Shown here: positions 4,685-39,809 of the stretch, in pieces
Numbering within the stretch: position 1 is the stretch's first letter
Layout: the number at the start of each line of letters is the position of its first letter
NCBI RefSeq assembly: GCF_002777825.1
Contig: NZ_MEIR01000043.1
Location: 62,001 to 126,000 of the forward strand
Direction: 5' to 3'
DNA from: Snodgrassella alvi
GTDB lineage: Bacteria; Pseudomonadota; Gammaproteobacteria; Burkholderiales; Neisseriaceae
DNA: 64,000 nt
Program-made: the position numbers and the translations under genes
Notes under the pieces: generated by a model
The model's database searches: none
What the model was told of the DNA's origin: nothing
What the model saw: only the letters and a program-made list of their open reading frames with translations

Positions 4685-5998
4685 TTACGCCCCTAGCCAG
4701 AGCAATTTAAATGCCCACAATATAGCAATAATCCACACCATGTAAGATACTTCTTTAACCTTACCACAGAACAATTTAATCAGTGCGTAACTGATGAAAC
4801 CCATCGCAATACCATCTGCAATAGAATAGGCAAAAGGCATAAAAATCAGAGTAAAGAATGCTGGCGCGGCCTCAGTAACATCTTTCCAGTCAATTTCCGT
4901 CATACTGCGCATCATCAGCACTCCCACATATAGCAATGCAGGAGCAGTAGCATACTCTGGAACACTAGCCGCTAGCTTAGAAAACCATAAACTTGCCAGC
5001 ATCAAAATGCCAACTACTACTGCTGTCAAACCTGTGCGGCCACCGACAGCAGCTCCAGCTGCTGATTCCACATAGGCAGTTGTAGAAGAAGTACCGAGGC
5101 CGGCACCGACCACAATTGCCGTCGAATCAGCCAGCAACGCTTTTTTTACCCGTGGCAGCTTACCATCTACCAGCAAACCTGCACGACCAGAAACACCAAT
5201 CAGAACACCGGTACTGTCAAACAAATCCACAAAGAAAAATACAAAAATAACACTAACCAGACTCATGGTAAATAAATCATGAAAGTCTAGCTGTAAAAAA
5301 GTCGGAGCTAACGAAGGAACTGGAGCAAATACACCCTGAAACTGATTGATTCCCAGCACCGAAGCAATAGCAGTAATTACTAAAATCCCAATAATAATCC
5401 CGCCACGCACCCGAAAATGTTCCAGTGCAACAATCAGACAGAAACCAACAATTGCCAAAAGCACCTTAGGAGAATGGATATCGCCCAAACTAACCAGTGT
5501 AGCTGGATTGGATACCACGACACCAGCACTTTTTAGAGCCACCAAGGCCAGAAACAGACCAATGCCGCCGCCAATAGAATATTTGAGAGAATTCGGTAGC
5601 GAATTAACAATCGCCTCGCGCACTTTAAACAGGCTCAGAATAATAAAAATGATGCCGGAAACACAAACCGCTCCCAATGCCACCTGCCACGGAATACCCA
5701 TCCCTCTTACCACAGCATAAGTGAAATAAGCATTCAATCCCATTCCGGGCGCCAGAGCAATCGGATAGTTTGCTATCAGCCCCATCATCATGCAAGCAAA
5801 CGCAGAAGAAATACAGGTAGCCACAAAAACCGCACCGAAATCCATACCCGCTTCTTCGAGAATAGTGGGATTAACTACCAAAATATAACTCATTGCCAAA
5901 AAAGTAGTCAGGCCGGCCAACACCTCCGTGCGTACACTGCTGCCACTTTCTTTAATTTTAAAAAAACGATCCAAAAAAGAAGTACCCGCTGGGCTCAT
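4685..5998 (-). CDS. NCS2 family purine permease (AdeQ/PbuG-like)
   Basis: This polytopic inner-membrane transporter of the azg-like branch of nucleobase-cation symporter family 2 imports adenine, guanine or hypoxanthine with protons. The 437-residue protein has some 12-14 hydrophobic segments and the family N-terminus, with FLAMSYILVVNPTIL near residue 35, APGMGLNAYF near residue 85 and GTSSTTAYVESAAG at about 300, all typical of purine permeases. The exact substrate cannot be read from sequence. It is monocistronic, with a terminator just downstream and paired short palindromes about 140 bases upstream. Confidence 0.9.
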   Translation of the reverse strand: MSPAGTSFLDRFFKIKESGSSVRTEVLAGLTTFLAMSYILVVNPTILEEAGMDFGAVFVATCISSAFACMMMGLIANYPIALAPGMGLNAYFTYAVVRGMGIPWQVALGAVCVSGIIFIILSLFKVREAIVNSLPNSLKYSIGGGIGLFLALVALKSAGVVVSNPATLVSLGDIHSPKVLLAIVGFCLIVALEHFRVRGGIIIGILVITAIASVLGINQFQGVFAPVPSLAPTFLQLDFHDLFTMSLVSVIFVFFFVDLFDSTGVLIGVSGRAGLLVDGKLPRVKKALLADSTAIVVGAGLGTSSTTAYVESAAGAAVGGRTGLTAVVVGILMLASLWFSKLAASVPEYATAPALLYVGVLMMRSMTEIDWKDVTEAAPAFFTLIFMPFAYSIADGIAMGFISYALIKLFCGKVKEVSYMVWIIAILWAFKLLWLGA

Positions 5999-30597: not shown

Positions 30598-30630
30598 ACA
30601 TCACAATCTCAGAGATAATCCAAACTTAGC

Positions 30631-30659
30631 AAGGATAAATCCAAATAATATTTATCCTT
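30631..30659 (+). terminator. Terminator after the DUF3579-GNAT gene
   Basis: AAGGATAAAT (30631-30640) and ATTTATCCTT (30650-30659) form a ten-base AT-rich stem with a nine-base loop followed by TTT, 33 bases beyond the stop codon. It marks the left boundary of the restriction-type island. Confidence 0.6.
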
Positions 30660-30794
30660 TTAAACAACCATTTAAATCAGAATTAAAACATCAGCTATCA
30701 CCTAACAAAGTAATCTTAGCGAAGCAAATGCCATATCAAATACAAATTATAACTTAATTAAATTTAAATTAACTCAACCTAGTCCAGCAAAACA

Positions 30795-33700
30795 ATGGGA
30801 ATCATAGATAACATCACCAAAACGCTCCATGAAGATTTATCAGACGAAATTAAACAAGGAAGTAAATTATCAATTGTTGCAGCATGTTTTTCATTCTTTG
30901 CTTTTGAAAAATTGAAAAAAGAGTTGAAAAATATTGATGAACTCCGTTTCATATTCACCTCACCAACTTTTATCACCGAACAAACCCCAAAAACGCAAAG
31001 AGAATTTTATATTCCACGACTAAACAGAGAACGCAGCCTTTATGGTACTGAATTTGAAATTAAACTTCGCAATGAATTAACACAAAAAGCGATTGCTAAA
31101 GAGTGCGCTGATTGGATTAGACAAAAGGTCACATTTAAATCCAACATCACCAATGAAAACATGAATGGATTTATACATGTAGATGATAATGCTTATATAC
31201 CCATCAATGGATTTACAACTATTGATCTAGGTTGTGAGCGGGGAAACAATGCTTACAATATAGTACAAAAGATTTCTTCCCCAGATTCAATTAAATTTCT
31301 TTCCATTTTTAATGAGCTTTGGCAAGATAAAACTAAACTTCAGGATGTAACCAATGTTGTTATCGACAATATTGCCAGTGCCTACAATGAAAATTCACCT
31401 GAGTTTATCTATTTTGTTATCCTCTATAATATTTTTAATGAATTTCTTGAAGACATCTCAGAAGATGTATTACCAAACGAAGCTACTGGATTTAAAAATA
31501 GCAAAATTTGGAATATGCTATTCAACTTTCAAAAAGATGCGGCTTTAACAATCATCAATAAACTTGAAAAATATAATGGCTGTATTTTAGCAGACAGTGT
31601 TGGGCTGGGAAAAACATTTACTGCTTTATCAGTAATTAAATATTATGAAAACCGAAATAAGTCTGTGCTTGTTTTATGCCCCAAAAAACTAAACAATAAC
31701 TGGAACACCTATAAAGCAAATTATATTAATAATCCCATCGCTGAAGATCGATTACGATATGATGTGCTTTTTCATACTGATCTTAATCGCTCTTGTGGCA
31801 AATCAAATGGTATAGATTTAGATCGGATTCATTGGAATAATTACGACCTTGTGATAGTTGATGAATCACATAACTTCCGTAATGGTGGCAAATTATCTGG
31901 AAAAGACAACGAAAAAGAAAATCGATATTTAAAATTACTTAATAAAGTGATTCGAAAAGGTGTCAAAACTAAAGTATTGATGCTTTCTGCAACACCAGTT
32001 AACAATCGTTTCAATGATCTAAAAAATCAATTAGCTCTTGCTTACGAAGGCAAAACCAATCATATTGATGAAAATCTCAATACTCACCGATCATTGGATG
32101 AGATTTTTAAAAATGCACAAAAAGCATTTAATATTTGGAGTAAACAAGATACAGCTGAAAGAACGACAGAAAACCTACTAAGAAGGTTAGATTTTGATTT
32201 TTTTGAAGTTTTGGATTCTGTTACAATTGCGCGCTCACGAAAACACATTCAAAAATATTACGACACCACAGATATTGGTACTTTTCCAACCAGGCTCAAA
32301 CCTATTTCAGTAAGACCTAAATTAACAGATTTAGCTGATGCAATAAGTTATAACGAAATTTTCGAACAACTAATGTTGCTGAATCTATCAATTTATACAC
32401 CCACCCACTTTATTTTACCAAGTAAAATGGATAAGTATGCAGAAATATATGAGGACAATAAAATAAATATCGGATTTACCCAAGCTAATCGAGAACAAGG
32501 GATTCGTCGTTTAATGGCAATCAACTTGATGAAACGACTCGAAAGCTCGGTATTCTCATTTAATCATACATTAGAGCGTATAAAGAACTTTATTCAGCAA
32601 ACTATAGCTACTATTGAATCCTATAGCCAAAGTGTAAAAAAAGAAATTGAGCTTACCGATATTACTAATTTAAATGATCTTGATGAAGATGAACAAAATA
32701 ATGATCATTTATTTACATTTGGCAAAAAAGTGAAAATTTCTTTATCTGATATGGATTATTTTTCATGGAAACACTATCTCACTAAAGATTATGAAATCTT
32801 ATCATTATTAACTCATATGATAAGTGACATCACAGCAAAACATGATACTAAATTACAAAATTTACTTACCATTATTAAAAATAAGCAACTCAATCCCATT
32901 AATAACAATAATAAAAAAGTAATTATATTTACCGCTTTTGCTGATACAGCAAGTTATTTGTTTGATCACGTTAGCCAGTATGTAAAAAATCACTTTTCCC
33001 TACATACCGCAATGATAACCGGTTCAGTTGACGGCAGATCTACTGTACCTAAATTGCATTGTGACTTAAACACTGTTTTAACCTGCTTTTCACCCAAATC
33101 AAAAGATAAACACTTGTTGATGCCAAATGACACTCATGAGATTGATATATTAATTGCTACTGACTGCATCTCTGAAGGGCAAAACTTACAAGATTGTGAT
33201 TATTTAATTAATTACGATATACATTGGAATCCGGTACGAATCATTCAACGTTTTGGACGTATTGATCGCATAGGTAGCAAAAATCAGTCAGTTCAGCTAG
33301 TTAACTTTTGGCCTGATGTTACTTTAGATGAATATATTGATCTAAAAGCAAAAGTAGAAACCCGCATGAAAATTGTCGACATGGCCGCAACGGGTGATGA
33401 CAATATATTGAGTGAAGAGGAAAAATTCGATTTAGCCTATCGTAAAGCACAGCTCAAACGCTTACAAGACGAAGTGGTTGATATTGAAGATATCACTAAT
33501 AGTATATCAATCATGGATTTAGGCCTAAATGAATTCAGACTTGATTTACTAGAATATATAAAAAACCATCCCGAACTTGATAAAACACCGTATGGATTAC
33601 ATGCCGTTGTGCCAGCTTTACCAGATATGCCCGCAGGTGTTATTTATATATTAAAAAACCGAGCAAACAGTATTAATATTAATAATCAAAATCGCCTTCA

Positions 33701-34052
33701 CCCATTTTACATGGTTTATGTTGCAAATAATGGCGAAATTATTTGTGACCATTTATCGCCAAAACAATTACTTGATAAAATACGCTTACTTTGCAAAGGC
33801 AAAACAGAACCCATTACAAAATTGTATCAACAATTCAATAAAATCACAGCCGATGGTGATAATATGACACATTTTTCACAACGACTTGGTGACGCCATAA
33901 ACTCCATTATTGAAGTAAAAAAACACAGTGATATTGATAATTTTTTAAGCGGTAACGCAATTAGTTTTGTTGCCGATAGTATAAAAGGTCTAGATGACTT
34001 TGAATTAATCTGTTTTTTAGTTGTTAGCGAATCAGAAAATAAGGTAGCATAA
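30795..34052 (+). CDS. SNF2-type helicase with degenerate PLD-like N-terminus
   Basis: This 1085-residue superfamily 2 protein heads a four-gene operon. Residues 1-150 resemble the phospholipase-D-like domain found fused to such helicases, but where the HxK motif is expected there is IHVDDNAYIPING, so the lysine is missing and nuclease activity is doubtful. The helicase motifs are intact: Walker A ADSVGLGKTF (about 266), VDESHNF (about 354), LSATPVNN (about 397), and motif VI IIQRFGRIDRIGS (about 815). A DNA or nucleoprotein translocase role is likely. The base composition is more AT-rich than flanking genes. Its stop overlaps the next start (TAATG). No strong ribosome binding site is seen at its own start. 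Confidence 0.85.
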   Translation: MGIIDNITKTLHEDLSDEIKQGSKLSIVAACFSFFAFEKLKKELKNIDELRFIFTSPTFITEQTPKTQREFYIPRLNRERSLYGTEFEIKLRNELTQKAIAKECADWIRQKVTFKSNITNENMNGFIHVDDNAYIPINGFTTIDLGCERGNNAYNIVQKISSPDSIKFLSIFNELWQDKTKLQDVTNVVIDNIASAYNENSPEFIYFVILYNIFNEFLEDISEDVLPNEATGFKNSKIWNMLFNFQKDAALTIINKLEKYNGCILADSVGLGKTFTALSVIKYYENRNKSVLVLCPKKLNNNWNTYKANYINNPIAEDRLRYDVLFHTDLNRSCGKSNGIDLDRIHWNNYDLVIVDESHNFRNGGKLSGKDNEKENRYLKLLNKVIRKGVKTKVLMLSATPVNNRFNDLKNQLALAYEGKTNHIDENLNTHRSLDEIFKNAQKAFNIWSKQDTAERTTENLLRRLDFDFFEVLDSVTIARSRKHIQKYYDTTDIGTFPTRLKPISVRPKLTDLADAISYNEIFEQLMLLNLSIYTPTHFILPSKMDKYAEIYEDNKINIGFTQANREQGIRRLMAINLMKRLESSVFSFNHTLERIKNFIQQTIATIESYSQSVKKEIELTDITNLNDLDEDEQNNDHLFTFGKKVKISLSDMDYFSWKHYLTKDYEILSLLTHMISDITAKHDTKLQNLLTIIKNKQLNPINNNNKKVIIFTAFADTASYLFDHVSQYVKNHFSLHTAMITGSVDGRSTVPKLHCDLNTVLTCFSPKSKDKHLLMPNDTHEIDILIATDCISEGQNLQDCDYLINYDIHWNPVRIIQRFGRIDRIGSKNQSVQLVNFWPDVTLDEYIDLKAKVETRMKIVDMAATGDDNILSEEEKFDLAYRKAQLKRLQDEVVDIEDITNSISIMDLGLNEFRLDLLEYIKNHPELDKTPYGLHAVVPALPDMPAGVIYILKNRANSININNQNRLHPFYMVYVANNGEIICDHLSPKQLLDKIRLLCKGKTEPITKLYQQFNKITADGDNMTHFSQRLGDAINSIIEVKKHSDIDNFLSGNAISFVADSIKGLDDFELICFLVVSESENKVA

Positions 34053-34657
34053 TGCTTGGTTTGCCCAAAACGACAGAAATAAATCACCAATTAGCTAAAA
34101 AAACAATCTATGCAAAGTTTCAATTGAACAATGCTACGAAAGAAAAAGTCGATGCGGATATAGCCAAAATTACCCTTGTTAACGAGGTTTCCGCTGCAAA
34201 AATAAATCTCGCAGCAGGAAATAACATTAATGCTTTTTTTGTGGCATTGGTACAACTAAAAAAAATCAATTTTAATGAAACAAGCCTTATTTTATTATCT
34301 AAGCTAATACCGCAAAATATACTATTTATTTTGCAATATGCTCAGCAGGCTAAATTGGCCATTTTTCAACATAAATTAATACAAAGCGATTGGCAACCTA
34401 AAAAAGATCTCAGAATTGAATTAAAAGGGGTAAACCTCGATAATGTATGGCACAACCTCATTCAACAAATCGGCAAGTTCAATATTGAGCAAGGCAATAG
34501 CCTTGAGCAGCAGATTATTATTGCTGATAAAAGACAAAAACTGATTTTAAACATTGCTCGCCTTGAAAAGCAAGCAAGAAAAGAACTACAGCCTAAAAAA
34601 GCATTTGAATTGGTGCAAAAAATTAACCAATTGAAACAAGAATTAAAGGATTCTTAA
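34052..34657 (+). CDS. DUF4391 family protein
   Basis: The protein has 201 residues and matches my recollection of DUF4391: a start like MLGLPKTTEINHQLAKKTIY, a lysine-rich strand-helix segment, LAIFQHKLIQSDWQ near residue 110, and a C-terminal coiled-coil-like helix rich in Lys, Gln and Glu. No enzymatic motif is visible. Proteins of this family are usually annotated beside helicase, Mod and Res genes as here, so a subunit or adaptor role is inferred. It overlaps the helicase stop by one base, has AAGGT upstream, and abuts mod with no gap. Confidence 0.75.
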   Translation: MLGLPKTTEINHQLAKKTIYAKFQLNNATKEKVDADIAKITLVNEVSAAKINLAAGNNINAFFVALVQLKKINFNETSLILLSKLIPQNILFILQYAQQAKLAIFQHKLIQSDWQPKKDLRIELKGVNLDNVWHNLIQQIGKFNIEQGNSLEQQIIIADKRQKLILNIARLEKQARKELQPKKAFELVQKINQLKQELKDS

Positions 34658-36499
34658 ATGGATAAATTAAAGATGCATTCACTCAATAAAGTGGATGAAA
34701 ATATCAAAAAAATCGGAGCACAATTCCCAAACTGTATTACAGAACGCAAAAACCAACAAGGTGAAGTGGAATACGCCATCGACTTTGATATGCTCAAGCA
34801 GGAACTTTCATCAGTGATTGTTGAAGGCAGAGAAGAACGTTATCAATTTACCTGGCCAGATAAAAAGAAATCGATTCTACTTGCTAATGCGCCCATAGCC
34901 AAAACCTTACGACCTTGCCGTGAAGAAAGTGTTGATTTTGACAATACCGAAAATTTATATATTGAAGGTGATAATCTTGAGGTATTAAAACTATTGCAGG
35001 AAACTTATCTTGGCAAAGTCAAAATGATCTATATCGATCCGCCTTATAATACCGGTAATGATTTTGTCTATGAAGATGATTTTGCGCAAAATACCTCTGA
35101 ATACCTTGAAAACAGTGGGCAATTTGATGATGAAGGCAACCGTTTAGTAAAAAATACAGAAACCAATGGCCGCTTTCATACTGATTGGCTGAATATGATT
35201 TATCCACGTTTAAAACTCGCCAGAGATCTACTGACTGATGATGGCGTGATTTTTATTAGTATTGATGACAATGAGGTGGCACAACTTAGAAAAATTTGTG
35301 ATGAGATTTTAGGCAGTAATAATTTTATTGCTGAATTAGTATGGCAAAAAAGAAAGGGTGGGGGGAATGACACAATGTTTATAGGTATTGATCATGAGTA
35401 TATTTTAGTTTATGCAAAAAGTTTGGTTTCTCAACCAACAGCATGGCGTGTAAAATATGAAGATGAATATCTAAAACGTTATAATCACAAGGATGCTATC
35501 GGAAAATACTATTATGATACTCTTTCTCGACCTGGTCTAAAAAATCCTATTATTTACGATGTAACATGTCCCGATGGTAGTATTATAAAAGACGGGACAT
35601 GGCAAATATCTAAGGAATCCTTTTTTAATGGACTAGAAACAGGTGAAGTATTATTTATTAAAAATAAATATGGCAAATATTCGGTAGTACGAAAAGTTCG
35701 TCAACCAGAAGGAAGAGTCTTTCGTTCGATTTTGAGTTCAGTTAGCAATAAAAACGCAGCCGACGAAATGGAAGATATATTTAATGCAAAAAAAACTTTT
35801 TCGTCACCAAAACCCCACAAATTACTTTTAGAGTTGTTAGAACTGTGTACAGAAAATAATTCAATAATTCTCGACTTCTTCTCAGGTTCCTCGACTACCG
35901 CTCATGCTGTTATGCAACTCAACGCAGAAGACGGTGGCAACCGTAAATTTATCATGGTGCAACTGCCAGAATCAACGGATGAGAAAAGCGAAGCTTACAA
36001 AGCAGGTTATAAAAATATCTGTGAAATTGGTAAAGAGCGTATTCGCCGTGCAGGCAATAAAATTGCCCAAGAAAATCCACAGGCTAAATTTGATAAAGGC
36101 TTTCGCGTCTTAAAGTGTGATAGCAGTAATATGAAAGAGGTTTATTACAATCCTGCTGAGTATAATACTGATCTTCTTGACGCCCAGATTGACAATATCA
36201 AAGCCGATAGAACAGCAGAAGATTTATTGTTCCAAGTTATGCTGGATTTAGGGGTATTACTCTCCAGTGATATCAAACAAACCACCATTGCCGATAAAAC
36301 CGTGTTTAATGTAGCAGATAACTTTTTAATGGCTTGCTTTGATACAGACATTAATGAAGAAGTCATCACCGCTATTGCCAAACAGAAACCTTACTATTTT
36401 GTTATGCGTGATAGCTCAATGGCAAATGATAGTGTTGCCACCAATTTTGAACAAATTTTTACTATCTACAGCCCGGAAACCAAGAGGAAGGTGTTGTAA
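34658..36499 (+). CDS. Type III-like DNA methyltransferase (Mod)
   Basis: This 613-residue site-specific DNA methyltransferase would modify an amino group of adenine (or cytosine) in the recognition site of the restriction partner. The order of motifs is that of the beta class: the catalytic DPPY in MIYIDPPYNTG (residues 127-130), a central variable region of about 200 residues that should contain the target-recognition domain, and the SAM-binding LDFFSGSSTTAHAV near residue 405. AAAGGA precedes the start. The stop TAA shares a base with the ATG of res. The frame is intact. Specificity cannot be predicted by eye. Confidence 0.9.
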   Translation: MDKLKMHSLNKVDENIKKIGAQFPNCITERKNQQGEVEYAIDFDMLKQELSSVIVEGREERYQFTWPDKKKSILLANAPIAKTLRPCREESVDFDNTENLYIEGDNLEVLKLLQETYLGKVKMIYIDPPYNTGNDFVYEDDFAQNTSEYLENSGQFDDEGNRLVKNTETNGRFHTDWLNMIYPRLKLARDLLTDDGVIFISIDDNEVAQLRKICDEILGSNNFIAELVWQKRKGGGNDTMFIGIDHEYILVYAKSLVSQPTAWRVKYEDEYLKRYNHKDAIGKYYYDTLSRPGLKNPIIYDVTCPDGSIIKDGTWQISKESFFNGLETGEVLFIKNKYGKYSVVRKVRQPEGRVFRSILSSVSNKNAADEMEDIFNAKKTFSSPKPHKLLLELLELCTENNSIILDFFSGSSTTAHAVMQLNAEDGGNRKFIMVQLPESTDEKSEAYKAGYKNICEIGKERIRRAGNKIAQENPQAKFDKGFRVLKCDSSNMKEVYYNPAEYNTDLLDAQIDNIKADRTAEDLLFQVMLDLGVLLSSDIKQTTIADKTVFNVADNFLMACFDTDINEEVITAIAKQKPYYFVMRDSSMANDSVATNFEQIFTIYSPETKRKVL

Positions 36500-39400
36500 T
36501 GAAATTTAATTTTAAAATTCAGCAATATCAAACTGATGCAGTAAATGCAGTAGTTCAAGCGTTTAATGGGCAAGGTTATCAAAATAGCCTGCGTTATGTG
36601 CGTGATTTAGGCAATACACCTACTCAGGCAGAAATGAGTTATGAAACTGCTTCAAGTTATACATCAGATGACAGCGCAATCGATATCGGTTTTAAAAATG
36701 AAATTATTTCATTATCCGATAACGAGTTACTTGCTAATATCAAAAAAATACAAAACCTAAACAATATTAAACAGTCCACTGATTTAATTAAAAACTTAGG
36801 TCGGTGTAGTCTTGATATCGAAATGGAAACGGGTACCGGCAAAACCTATGTTTACCTCAAAACCATGTTTGAACTAAACAAGCATTATGGCTGGAGCAAG
36901 TTTATTGTGGTTGTCCCCTCTATTGCCATTCGTGAGGGAGTAAAAAAAACCTTTGAAATAACTACAGACCATTTTATGGAGCATTATAGTCAAAAAGCTC
37001 GCTTTTTTGTCTATGACAGTAAAAATTTAAACTTATTAGATAGTTTTGCTGCCAATTCGGGCATTAATGTTATGATCATTAACACCCAAGCTTTTGCTTC
37101 CTCGCTAAAAGAAGACGGCAAAAATAAAGAAGCACGAATTATTTACTCAAAACGCGATGAGTTTGCCTCGCGCCGGCCGATTGATGTGATAGCCGCGAAT
37201 AATCCCATTATTATTTTGGATGAGCCTCAAAAAATGGGCGGCGAAGTCACGCAAAAAGCTTTAAAAAATTTTAATCCATTATTTTCGTTAAATTATTCTG
37301 CCACCCATAAAAAACAGAATAATCTCATTTATGTTCTTGATGCACTTGATGCATACAATAAACGACTGGTAAAAAAAATCGAAGTAAAGGGCTTTGAAGT
37401 CAAAAATCTAAGAGGTACTGATAGCTACTTATATCTTGAACAAATCGTCTTATCCAGTAAAAAACCGCCACTGGCAAAAATTGAGCTGGAAATAAATCAC
37501 AGCAATGGCATCAAACGTGAAATTCGCCATTTCACTGAGGGCGATAATCTCTATTCTGTTTCAAAACAGATGCAGCAATACAAGGGATATACGGTATCTG
37601 AAATCAATCCTTTGACTGGAATAGTCACTTTTACCAATGGTGTTGCAATTAAAACTGGTGAAGTGATAGGTGATATTTCTGAAGAAAATATGCGCCGCAT
37701 TCAAATTAGAGAAACCATATTATCCCACTTTGACAAAGAAGAAAAATTGTTCAATATGGGCATTAAATCACTATCATTGTTTTTTATTGATGAAGTGGCA
37801 AGATACCGCCAATATGATGAAAACAATAACGAAATATTGGGCGAATATGGCCAAATCTTTGAACAAGAATACCTAACGATTTTGCAACAATACTTAGACC
37901 AAGCCAGCAACACGCCTTATCAGCAATATTTAAAAACTAAGTGTAATGATGCAAGCCAAGTACATAAAGGCTACTTTAGCATTGATAAAAAAACCGGCAA
38001 AAGTATTGATAGCCAATTAAAACGAGGTAGCGAATCTTCAGATGATATTTCAGCTTACGACCTGATTCTTAAAAATAAAGAACAGCTATTAAGTTTTGAT
38101 GAGCCCACTCGATTTATCTTCTCACACTCAGCGCTACGTGAAGGTTGGGATAATCCCAATGTTTTCCAGATTTGTACATTAAAACACTCCGATAACCAAA
38201 CAGCCAAACGGCAAGAAGTCGGCCGTGGTCTTCGTTTATGTGTTAATCAAGATGGTAATCGTATGGATATTGAAAGCTGCGGCGAACAAGTCCACGATAT
38301 CAACATGTTAACCGTTATCGCCAGTGAAAGTTATAGAAACTTTGTCAGTGCTCTTCAAGCCGATATCAAAACCGTTATTTATGATCGACCAACTGTCGCC
38401 ACCAGTGAGTACTTTTTCGGTAAATATGTAGAAGTTAATGGCGTATCGACCATTATCGATAAAGCCACTGCTGATAAAATTGAATTTTATTTAATTAGTC
38501 GTGGCTATGTTGATATCGAGCGTAAAATAACCGATAAATACCGCAACGATGTTGCAATGGACACAGTGGCACCATTACCAGATGAACTACAACTAATGGG
38601 TGACGGAATTCATCGCTTAATTCAGGCTATTTATAGTGATAGCGTGTTAGATGCCATGTTTACCGATGGTCATGAAACAAAAATTAAAGATAATCCGCTT
38701 AATGATAATTTCGACAAAGCCGAATTCCAAGCATTATGGCAGCAAATTAATCAGCAATATGCCTATACTGTTGACTTTGATAGCGATGAATTAATCAACA
38801 AAGCAATTGCTCATATCAACGATAAGTTATTTGTCTCACAGCTACAATACATTACGGCTGTCGGTCAACTTAAAGAGCAGATAACAACACAGAGTATCTA
38901 TCAAAATGATGCGTTTAAAACTCAAGAAACAAAGACTGCCACTTTGGAACATGCTTATTTTAAACAAATAAAATACGACCTGATTGGTCAGATTGCGCAA
39001 GAAACCACATTAACCCGCAAAACAGTAGTGTCCATATTAAAGGGACTAGATTCAAAAAAACTAGATATGTTTAAGGATAATCCAGAAGAATTTATTGCTA
39101 AAATTATTAAATTAATTAAAGAACAAAAAGCAACTACGATTATAGAACATATTACATACAATAAAACTTCAGGCAAATATGACAGTACCATTTTCACTCA
39201 GGAAAAAAGTTTACAAAGTTACGATAAAGCGTTTTTAGCGAAAAAAGCAATCCAAAATTATGTATTTACTGATGGCTTAGCCGAAAAAAGTATTGAACGA
39301 AAATTTGTTGAAGACCTTGATACGGCAGAAGAAGTATGCGTATATGCAAAATTACCAAAAGGTTTTCATATTCCAACACCTGTTGGTAATTATTCACCCG

Positions 39401-39612
39401 ATTGGGCAATTGCTTTTCATGTTGGGAAAGTAAAGCATATCTTTTTCATTGCTGAAACCAAAGGTACGATGGATAGTTTAAATTTAAGGCCTATTGAACA
39501 AGCAAAAATTTCGTGCGCAAAAAAGCTTTTTAACGAATTTTCGACTAGTAAAGTACGCTATCATGATGTTGATAGTTATCAAAGCCTGATGAGTATAATG
39601 AATTCATTATAA
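36499..39612 (+). CDS. Type III-like restriction subunit (Res): helicase-nuclease
   Basis: This 1037-residue protein would use ATP to translocate or signal along DNA and then cleave unmodified targets. Walker A is METGTGKTYV (about 109-118), and the DExx box is DEPQKM, the DEPQ variant typical of Type III Res. SHSALREGWDNPNVF and RQEVGRGLRL are later helicase motifs. The C-terminus has a PD-(D/E)xK nuclease: SPDWAIAF followed by FFIAETKG (about 963-985). The reading frame is complete. AGGAAGG precedes the start, and translation is coupled to mod. It ends the four-gene operon. Confidence 0.9.
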   Translation: MKFNFKIQQYQTDAVNAVVQAFNGQGYQNSLRYVRDLGNTPTQAEMSYETASSYTSDDSAIDIGFKNEIISLSDNELLANIKKIQNLNNIKQSTDLIKNLGRCSLDIEMETGTGKTYVYLKTMFELNKHYGWSKFIVVVPSIAIREGVKKTFEITTDHFMEHYSQKARFFVYDSKNLNLLDSFAANSGINVMIINTQAFASSLKEDGKNKEARIIYSKRDEFASRRPIDVIAANNPIIILDEPQKMGGEVTQKALKNFNPLFSLNYSATHKKQNNLIYVLDALDAYNKRLVKKIEVKGFEVKNLRGTDSYLYLEQIVLSSKKPPLAKIELEINHSNGIKREIRHFTEGDNLYSVSKQMQQYKGYTVSEINPLTGIVTFTNGVAIKTGEVIGDISEENMRRIQIRETILSHFDKEEKLFNMGIKSLSLFFIDEVARYRQYDENNNEILGEYGQIFEQEYLTILQQYLDQASNTPYQQYLKTKCNDASQVHKGYFSIDKKTGKSIDSQLKRGSESSDDISAYDLILKNKEQLLSFDEPTRFIFSHSALREGWDNPNVFQICTLKHSDNQTAKRQEVGRGLRLCVNQDGNRMDIESCGEQVHDINMLTVIASESYRNFVSALQADIKTVIYDRPTVATSEYFFGKYVEVNGVSTIIDKATADKIEFYLISRGYVDIERKITDKYRNDVAMDTVAPLPDELQLMGDGIHRLIQAIYSDSVLDAMFTDGHETKIKDNPLNDNFDKAEFQALWQQINQQYAYTVDFDSDELINKAIAHINDKLFVSQLQYITAVGQLKEQITTQSIYQNDAFKTQETKTATLEHAYFKQIKYDLIGQIAQETTLTRKTVVSILKGLDSKKLDMFKDNPEEFIAKIIKLIKEQKATTIIEHITYNKTSGKYDSTIFTQEKSLQSYDKAFLAKKAIQNYVFTDGLAEKSIERKFVEDLDTAEEVCVYAKLPKGFHIPTPVGNYSPDWAIAFHVGKVKHIFFIAETKGTMDSLNLRPIEQAKISCAKKLFNEFSTSKVRYHDVDSYQSLMSIMNSL

Positions 39613-39752
39613 TGAATGTAATCACCTCATAGTTAGCACAACTATCACATCAGAATCTTGCGATGCAGAAACAATTGAGAATGCTTCTGCTTTGTCGCCA
39701 TACCGCTTGAGTATAGAGTACTTACTACCCTAAAGACATCTGTTCTTCTAGA

Positions 39753-39796
39753 AAAAAACTGCATAGACCAGCTAAATCTGATCTATGCAGTTTTTT
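39753..39796. terminator. Bidirectional terminator between res and rpoH
   Basis: AAAAAACTGCATAGA (39753-39767) and TCTATGCAGTTTTTT (39782-39796) are perfect inverted repeats with long A and T flanks, between two converging genes. It is a strong terminator in both directions. Confidence 0.9.
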
Positions 39797-39809
39797 CACT
39801 CAAACTAAA

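What the first reader, a model, noticed from the sequence alone, without database searches (positions are those of the whole stretch)
30795..39612. Four-gene helicase-DUF4391-Mod-Res island
An SNF2-type helicase with a PLD-like N-terminus and a DUF4391 protein are translationally coupled to a complete Type III-like Mod-Res pair (TAATG overlap, abutting, TAATG overlap). Ordinary Type III systems are only Mod plus Res. The second motor and an adaptor-like protein suggest a composite defence machine. It is distinct from DISARM (no DUF1998 gene) and BREX (no PglZ). The island is visibly more AT-rich than the core genes on both sides and is bounded by two terminators, consistent with horizontal acquisition.
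Basis: partly seen in the sequence, partly recalled or inferred. Interest (0 to 1): 0.75.

Follow-up and report, generated by a model that had tools for sequence, protein, structure and literature searches.

The report
Type III restriction system with motor
This is a four-gene bacterial DNA-restriction operon in which an ordinary two-part methylate-or-cut enzyme is joined by a DNA-motor protein whose own cutting site has decayed and by a small helper protein, an arrangement seen in many unrelated bacteria, on an archaeal plasmid and on an E. coli phage-like plasmid.

Summary
Window 30795-39612 is a tight operon: SNF2 helicase (HEL), DUF4391, type III Mod, type III Res. It is widespread. Of 80 named-genome loci found with the helicase, all 51 with at least 8 kb downstream carry DUF4391, Mod and Res. 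It also occurs on plasmids, including an SSU5-like E. coli plasmid and an archaeal one. Dependence is one-sided: in 299 genomes, 16 of 17 full helicases co-occur with DUF4391 and strong Res, while 11 of 29 strong-Res genomes lack DUF4391. A congener keeps intact Mod-Res beside a broken DUF4391, with no helicase found. None of 102 relatives has the PLD catalytic H-K pair, while ATPase motifs persist. Sister helicases without Mod-Res keep H-x-K (6 of 6) and accompany a DUF4391-like/Eco57I-type methylase. My reading: a type III enzyme carrying a nuclease-dead motor arm, DUF4391 probably the coupler. Those roles are inferred, untested. The searches listed found no description in print. New variant of a known kind.

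The parts
30795..34052 (+). HEL: SNF2/RapA-type helicase, 1085 aa, first gene of the operon; GLGKT (aa 270), DESH (356), SAT (398), QRFGR (818)
31161..31247 (+). Degenerate PLD-like core of HEL (aa 123-151); aligns to the HGKLIHIDD..GSSNFT stretch of the sister helicase in L193, catalytic H and K missing
34052..34657 (+). DUF4391 protein, 201 aa; AlphaFold2 model (pLDDT 91.6, pTM 0.73): alpha/beta domain then a C-terminal helical hairpin (aa 151-177, 181-200)
34658..36499 (+). Mod: type III N6-adenine-type methyltransferase, 613 aa, DPPY at aa 127, FFSGSST at 407
35258..35857 (+). Presumed target-recognition part of Mod (about aa 201-400): 16-62% identical per 50-aa block to congener G080, against 77-98% in the other blocks
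36499..39612 (+). Res: type III restriction subunit, 1037 aa; GTGKT (112), DEPQ (241), RQEVGRGLR (571)
39259..39573 (+). RE_endonuc nuclease domain of Res (aa 921-1025) with PD..ETK
30622..30668 (+). Hairpin followed by a U-rich run after the upstream DUF3579 gene (terminator-like)
   Evidence: z -5.3
39748..39800 (.). Two-sided hairpin between Res and the convergent sigma-70-family gene (rpoH-like, my label)
   Evidence: z -7.7; sigma-70 regions

Best explanation
The operon is a four-component type III restriction-modification system. SHOWN by sequence: Mod and Res have the parts of an EcoP15I-like enzyme, methylase motif and PD-(D/E)XK nuclease included; HEL keeps its SNF2 ATPase motifs but lacks the PLD catalytic pair; HEL and DUF4391 travel together and seldom without Mod-Res. 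INFERRED: Mod finds the target, Res is the only nuclease, and HEL-DUF4391 is a motor arm. DUF4391 docks HEL on the Mod-Res complex, and HEL pumps along DNA from an unmethylated site. This would strip or push past bound proteins and bring distant complexes together, so that Res cuts where passive sliding between two head-to-head sites would fail. The arm seems to descend from a restriction arm (PLD nuclease plus motor) that in a sister system works with an Eco57I-type methylase carrying a DUF4391-like domain; beside Res the PLD site was free to decay.
For: Linkage: of 80 named-genome loci, DUF4391 in 72 of 73 with >=0.9 kb downstream of HEL, Mod in 59 of 59 with >=4.5 kb, Res in 51 of 51 with >=8 kb (order). 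Sample of 299 genomes: 16 of 17 full-length helicases with DUF4391 and strong Res; 18 of 19 DUF4391 genomes with strong Res. Motifs in complete ORFs: Res PD..[ED]xK 75 of 75, Mod [DN]PP[YFW] 84 of 84, HEL GLGKT+DESH 97 of 97, QRFGR 95 of 97. PLD: the H and K together in 0 of 102 helicases; among 69 viral-contig helicases H-x-K and GSSN in 5, exactly those accompanied by a DUF4391-like/methylase protein. DUF4391 profile against the fused domain: hhalign E 9.8e-5, probability 58; reverse hmmsearch hits 7 of 92, best E 5.1e-8. Partial correlation of distances over 71 loci: HEL-Res 0.60, Mod-Res 0.49, HEL-DUF4391 0.35, HEL-Mod -0.01.
Against: No experiment and no complex model. Mod-Res exists without the arm in the same clades. 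The full HxK(x4)D is present in only 2 of the 6 sister helicases (L193, L262); the other four have H-x-K and GSSNFT without the D, so an active sister nuclease is likely but not sure. L118 has a histidine in the H column, and L070 and L110 have a stray HxKx4D at non-aligned places of the N-terminus. The DUF4391 link to the fused domain is weak: probability 1% with one sequence, Pfam E 0.0059 below cut-off, DUF4391 profile hits 1 of 6 fused proteins. Among 1023 closer pairs the HEL-Res partial correlation falls to 0.31 and DUF4391-Res rises to 0.35; DUF4391-Mod stays low (0.16, 0.12). My G[AST]GK[ST] pattern is met in 62 of 75 Res; I did not look into the other 13.
Confidence: 0.47

Rival explanations
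1. HEL-DUF4391 is a back-up or guard defence that fires when phage anti-restriction disables Mod-Res, and does not take part in ordinary cutting.
For: Some operons hold other inserted defence-like genes: Schlafen-like, RhuM, Fic, Abi_C, YhcG nuclease, GmrSD. Mod-Res can live without the pair.
Against: No nuclease or toxin domain is seen in HEL or DUF4391 by Pfam and the PLD pair is gone. Unlike the inserted genes, the pair is nearly always present and in front of Mod.
Confidence: 0.19
2. HEL-DUF4391 protects the host: it removes Res from host DNA at replication forks or unmethylated sites (restriction alleviation).
For: SNF2/RapA-type motors act on DNA-bound complexes (recalled knowledge of the family); the first-gene position could give early expression.
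Against: Congener G080 keeps Mod and Res as full-length ORFs (omega 0.22 and 0.095 against the window) with no helicase match in the genome and a stop-ridden DUF4391 remnant; loss of a protector should be costly while Res is intact. The PLD-bearing sister suggests descent from an effector.
Confidence: 0.12
3. The pair acts in modification: HEL-DUF4391 helps Mod find or methylate sites.
For: DUF4391 lies next to Mod, and a DUF4391-like domain is fused to a methylase in the sister system.
Against: Distances couple HEL to Res and not to Mod (partial 0.60 versus -0.01 over all pairs; 0.31 versus -0.16 over closer pairs).
Confidence: 0.13
4. Ordinary type III system plus a loosely linked passenger pair of no mechanistic importance.
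For: Mod-Res without the pair is common (11 of 29 genomes).
Against: Linkage holds in 51 of 51 named-genome loci with room, over many phyla by record title.
Confidence: 0.05

Closest known systems
Type III restriction-modification, EcoP15I (PDB 4ZCF)
   Same: Mod (E 8e-68) and Res (E 1.5e-75) are its relatives by sequence; mod before res.
   Different: Two further genes in front. [quoted passage not shown]
PADLOC C3a139 'HKD+Snf2' model (PDLC01075)
   Same: Near full-length match to HEL, E 4.5e-121; the PLD-bearing sister matches too, E 2.4e-104.
   Different: A protein model; no PADLOC model hits DUF4391 at E<=1. HEL lacks the residues the name implies.
PbeA / CxC-ABC-ATPase systems (PMC10853773, passages only)
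   Same: HKD nuclease fused to an SF2 helicase, with a small protein and a DNA methylase among the components.
   Different: PbeA models hit the sister weakly (43.8 bits) and are not among the 25 rows shown for HEL; no type III Mod-Res described in those passages.
Type-2 BREX-related (BR) systems (PMC12839542, passages and section 31)
   Same: HKD + Swi2/Snf2 helicase with an N6-methylase, proposed to act like restriction-modification.
   Different: Their DUF499 ATPase is not among the four genes here; HEL lacks the HKD pair and comes with Res.
DISARM (DrmD)
   Same: SNF2 helicase plus methylase; HEL has a secondary match to DrmD (140.8 bits).
   Different: Far below the NCBIfam DrmD cut-off (166 versus 610 bits); no DUF1998 gene among the four.

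Membership tests
Type III restriction-modification | Mod subunit: methylase with DPPY motif, EcoP15I Mod homologue | tested here: met
Type III restriction-modification | Res subunit: SF2 ATPase with C-terminal PD-(D/E)XK, EcoP15I Res homologue | tested here: met
Type III restriction-modification | Two-gene mod-res composition | tested here: not met
   Two further genes in front; hence filed as a variant, not as a plain type III
Type III restriction-modification | One-strand methylation of an asymmetric site; cutting needs two opposed sites | not testable with these tools
   needs methylome and cleavage assays
DISARM | DUF1998 gene and the DrmD equivalog | tested here: not met
   No DUF1998 match in the four genes or the two flanking genes (E<=1); DrmD cut-off not reached
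BREX | PglZ | tested here: not met
   No PglZ among Pfam matches of the four genes or the rows shown (capped at 25 per protein)
HKD+SNF2 nuclease-helicase (PLD-family nuclease) | HxK(x4)D catalytic motif | tested here: not met
   H and K together in 0 of 102 relatives. Sister set: H-x-K in 6 of 6, the whole motif in 2 of 6
PbeABCD / CxC ABC-ATPase systems | CxC ABC ATPase and DndE-like protein | tested here: not met
   Not among Pfam matches of the four genes; not sought elsewhere in the genome
Anti-phage defence | Protects cells from phage | not testable with these tools
   no assay

The most novel reading that the evidence does not exclude
HEL-DUF4391 is an exchangeable motor arm that makes powered, long-range restriction enzymes out of different methylases: with a PLD nuclease beside Eco57I-type methylases, and nuclease-dead beside type III Mod-Res, where it replaces passive sliding by directed translocation and lifts the two-site, head-to-head rule.
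Probability: 0.23. Interest if true: 0.78.

Novelty: new variant of a known kind. Interest (0 to 1): 0.6.

Why it matters
Type III enzymes are the textbook case of restriction by sliding between two opposed sites. A widespread form that carries an SNF2 motor with a decayed nuclease makes a direct test possible: does the motor change site-orientation rules, roadblock tolerance or phage range? The copy on an SSU5-like E. coli plasmid makes it tractable. DUF4391 gains a first testable role, and defence-gene annotation would gain a four-gene system now split into 'type III RM' plus 'HKD+Snf2'. The sister system suggests how a nuclease-motor module may move between methylases and lose its blade when another nuclease is at hand.

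Tried and rejected
Rejected: (1) an added PLD nuclease: H-x-K absent. (2) DISARM/BREX membership. (3) The promoter/terminator scan as evidence: no more than chance; folding used instead. (4) Old shared insertion versus transfer inside the genus: dS of Mod/Res between window and G080 (0.92, 0.78) is below that of the sigma-factor gene (1.69), which points to exchange between species, but one control gene does not settle it. (5) A viral-contig scan with the sister helicase alone found no relative.

Exceptions told: L030 has DUF4391 at a contig start and no Mod/Res in the 9.6 kb after it. L052 has no called DUF4391; an ORF at 5295-5477 looks to me like its C-terminal end (by eye). In the viral-contig set (74 loci; best 80 of 103 relatives kept) DUF4391 was called in 55 of 60, Mod in 46 of 52, Res in 36 of 45, all three in 36 of 45 with room. 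Of the ten exceptions, five are the methylase-fusion sister (L262, L267, L268, L271, L285); L276 has HEL directly followed by Res (missed by the script's strict test, so Res is 37 of 45); L283 has HEL-DUF4391 and no Mod/Res; L215, L223 and L288 hold only short Mod or Res pieces. The 80 named-genome loci are the best hits of a capped scan (585 relatives), so they lean to close relatives. L209 is a helicase relative beside a DpnII-MboI nuclease. Of ten genomes matched, five new loci opened (L205-L208, L210) show all four genes; G643 contig C81 and G445 were not opened. Acetobacter plasmid L214 has HEL-DUF4391-Mod and no annotated Res in the stretch. Some pair-less genomes are incomplete (G359, G284, G246, G261: 69-85%).

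Structure: structure prediction was answered 'busy', accepted and finished for DUF4391 only; fold search was busy, so the DUF4391 fold was not compared and no helicase model was made.
Full report
OBSERVATION. HEL is 1085 aa, best PADLOC match C3a139 'HKD+Snf2' (E 4.5e-121), with SNF2 and helicase matches in Pfam. The 201-aa protein is DUF4391 (E 1.9e-26). Mod (613 aa) and Res (1037 aa) match PADLOC type III models at E 6.3e-233 and 5.1e-291 and are sequence relatives of the EcoP15I subunits. Motifs in the window: HEL GLGKT, DESH, SAT, QRFGR; Mod DPPY, FFSGSST; Res GTGKT, DEPQ, RQEVGRGLR, PD..ETK. The genes have 0.32-0.36 G+C against 0.44 outside.

SITE AND ACQUISITION. The window lies in a 2.58-Mb genome. 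In the family, 2 of 83 genomes have DUF4391. In the genus (14 genomes, own included) the sigma-factor flank was found in all 14. In those 14 loci, 9 hold both flanks within the roughly 3.8-kb stretch with no island match, 1 (G074) has a short stop-ridden helicase remnant between the flanks, 1 (G080) has Mod-Res at the same place, 2 (L131, L134) could not be judged, and 1 is the window. So the island comes and goes at one site.

A NATURAL DELETION. G080 has Mod and Res as full ORFs (73% and 86% identical to the window) at the same site. Upstream, a DUF4391-like remnant is broken by stops and the contig then ends; no helicase match was found in that genome (94% complete) at E<=0.001. Pairwise omega is 0.22 for Mod and 0.095 for Res; this covers both lineages and does not date the loss. 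Mod is 77-98% identical per 50-aa block except in aa 201-400 (16-62%), so target recognition has probably been swapped.

LINKAGE. In 299 genomes of the phylum (same handles in three calls; the window's genome included): DUF4391 in 19, full helicase (>=700 bits) in 17, Res of >=388 bits in 29 (52 at E<=0.001). Crossing these lists by hand, 16 of 17 helicase genomes have DUF4391 and strong Res (exception G153); 18 of 19 DUF4391 genomes have strong Res (exception G104); the three DUF4391 genomes without a full helicase (G100, G104, G338) have DUF4391 at a contig end; 11 of 29 strong-Res genomes have no DUF4391. Of 20 stretches opened first, 13 show all four genes (in L029 Mod is split), 6 are cut by contig ends, and 1 (L030) is an exception. 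Neighbourhoods without the pair were seen directly, for example L177 and L178; L181 instead has a DrmD-like helicase (705 bits) abutting Mod. In a midpoint-rooted Res tree of 89 proteins several pair-less Res sit beside four-gene relatives (for example L137, L177, L178), L181 and L184 lie at the base of the second four-gene group and L187 outside. This fits repeated loss of the pair, though some pair-less loci (L179, L183, L186) have short Mod or Res ORFs.

MOBILITY. 103 plasmid records carry the helicase at E<=1e-30. Of seven plasmid stretches opened, six show all four genes (E. coli, Aeromonas, Listeria, Mycolicibacterium, the archaeon Methanomethylovorans, Acinetobacter NEB149) and one (Acetobacter) no annotated Res. 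The first four were also checked by profile; in the other two Mod and Res rest on annotation, in Listeria Mod is in two pieces, and in Aeromonas Res is cut by the end of the stretch. The E. coli one lies beside repA, and its neighbouring genes match Escherichia phage Cyrano (89% over 97% of the query) and Salmonella phage SSU5 (94.6% over 56%); hence 'SSU5-like'. An Erysipelothrix phage record also has all four.

DEAD PLD, LIVE MOTOR. No Pfam PLD family appears among the listed matches of 52 distinct helicases (rare families beyond the 25 shown cannot be excluded). One exceptional helicase, in G153, matches PLDc_2 (E 3.2e-8), has HGKLIHID and GSSNFT, and is not followed by Mod-Res. Aligned to it, 0 of 102 other helicases have both H and K; no sequence has the K and only L118 an H in that column. 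GLGKT and DESH are kept in 97 of 97 complete ORFs. Of 69 helicases from viral contigs (5 of 74 loci dropped as short), only five have H-x-K and GSSN. They are the same five that come with a protein resembling the G153 methylase and, at its N-terminus, its DUF4391-like part (1200-1560 aa in four, cut by the contig end in L271; in L267 a 277-aa gene lies between). Only L193 and L262 have the whole HxK(x4)D. In G153 the DUF4391-like and Eco57I parts lie in overlapping frames.

DUF4391. 73 relatives share one invariant and five near-invariant residues. The AlphaFold2 model is confident (pLDDT 91.6): an alpha/beta domain followed by a long helical hairpin, a shape that would suit a binding or dimerising part (inference). 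Homology to the methylase-fused domain is likely and not certain: hhalign E 9.8e-5, probability 58, with six sequences; 1% with one; Pfam E 0.0059 below cut-off.

INSERTS. Extra same-strand ORFs of 100 aa or more sit between the core genes in many loci (97 ORFs, overlapping frames included: 46 Mod-Res, 40 DUF4391-Mod, 11 HEL-DUF4391). Of ten examples sent to Pfam, seven match defence-like families (Schlafen-like, RhuM, zeta-toxin-like, Fic, Abi_C, YhcG nuclease, GmrSD) and three none of note. They vary; HEL and DUF4391 do not.

MECHANISM. Chosen model: Mod-Res with a nuclease-dead motor arm (HEL) held by DUF4391. Shown: composition, linkage, one-sided dependence and loss of the PLD pair. Inferred: docking, translocation and the effect on restriction. 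After partial correlation over 71 loci HEL couples most to Res (0.60) and not to Mod (-0.01); among 1023 closer pairs HEL-Res is 0.31, HEL-DUF4391 0.42, DUF4391-Res 0.35 and HEL-Mod -0.16. This favours the restriction side, with the caution that shared inheritance and alignment noise enter. Review passages on type III (PMC12707154) state the two-opposed-site rule and that powered translocation is used by Type I and ISP enzymes; the arm could supply that.

PRINT. Searches made: DUF4391 (1 paper, a list of enriched domains), PF14335 (0), C3a139 (0), and combinations on type III, SNF2, HKD, PLD, operon and SSU5. No description of the four-gene system was seen in those listings or in the passages read. 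The library holds open-licence papers only; Makarova 2013 (PMC3632139) was not held, so an earlier mention cannot be excluded; Makarova 2011 was not looked up.

Noticed in passing
L262, L267, L268, L271, L285; L193:8954-16234: Sister system: helicase with PLD H-x-K and GSSNFT accompanied by a DUF4391-like/Eco57I-type methylase protein; no Mod-Res seen in the stretches held.
   Followed up: partly
L181:5577-10961: A DrmD-like (DISARM-type) helicase abuts a type III Mod, with a very weakly HEPN-like gene (Pfam E 0.014) between Mod and Res: a second SNF2 motor family beside type III.
   Followed up: partly
L137:393-2249 against window 34658-36496: Mod aa 201-400 diverged (16-62% per 50-aa block) between congeners while the other blocks are 77-98% identical.
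   Followed up: yes
L138:3211-3420: Stop-ridden helicase remnant at the same site in G074, the congener with the most similar sigma-factor gene.
   Followed up: yes
L036, L083, L025, L064, L098, L094, L031 (between the core genes): Operon gaps hold a varying set of defence-like genes (Schlafen-like, RhuM, zeta-like, Fic, Abi_C, YhcG nuclease, GmrSD).
   Followed up: partly
L191: Erysipelothrix phage phi1605 record carries the four genes near annotated mef(A) and msr(D) and several recombinase genes.
   Followed up: no
L276:5858-12114: Helicase of this family directly followed by Res with no DUF4391 or Mod between them.
   Followed up: no
L209:1944-7556: A 1463-aa helicase relative next to a DpnII-MboI-type nuclease.
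   Followed up: no
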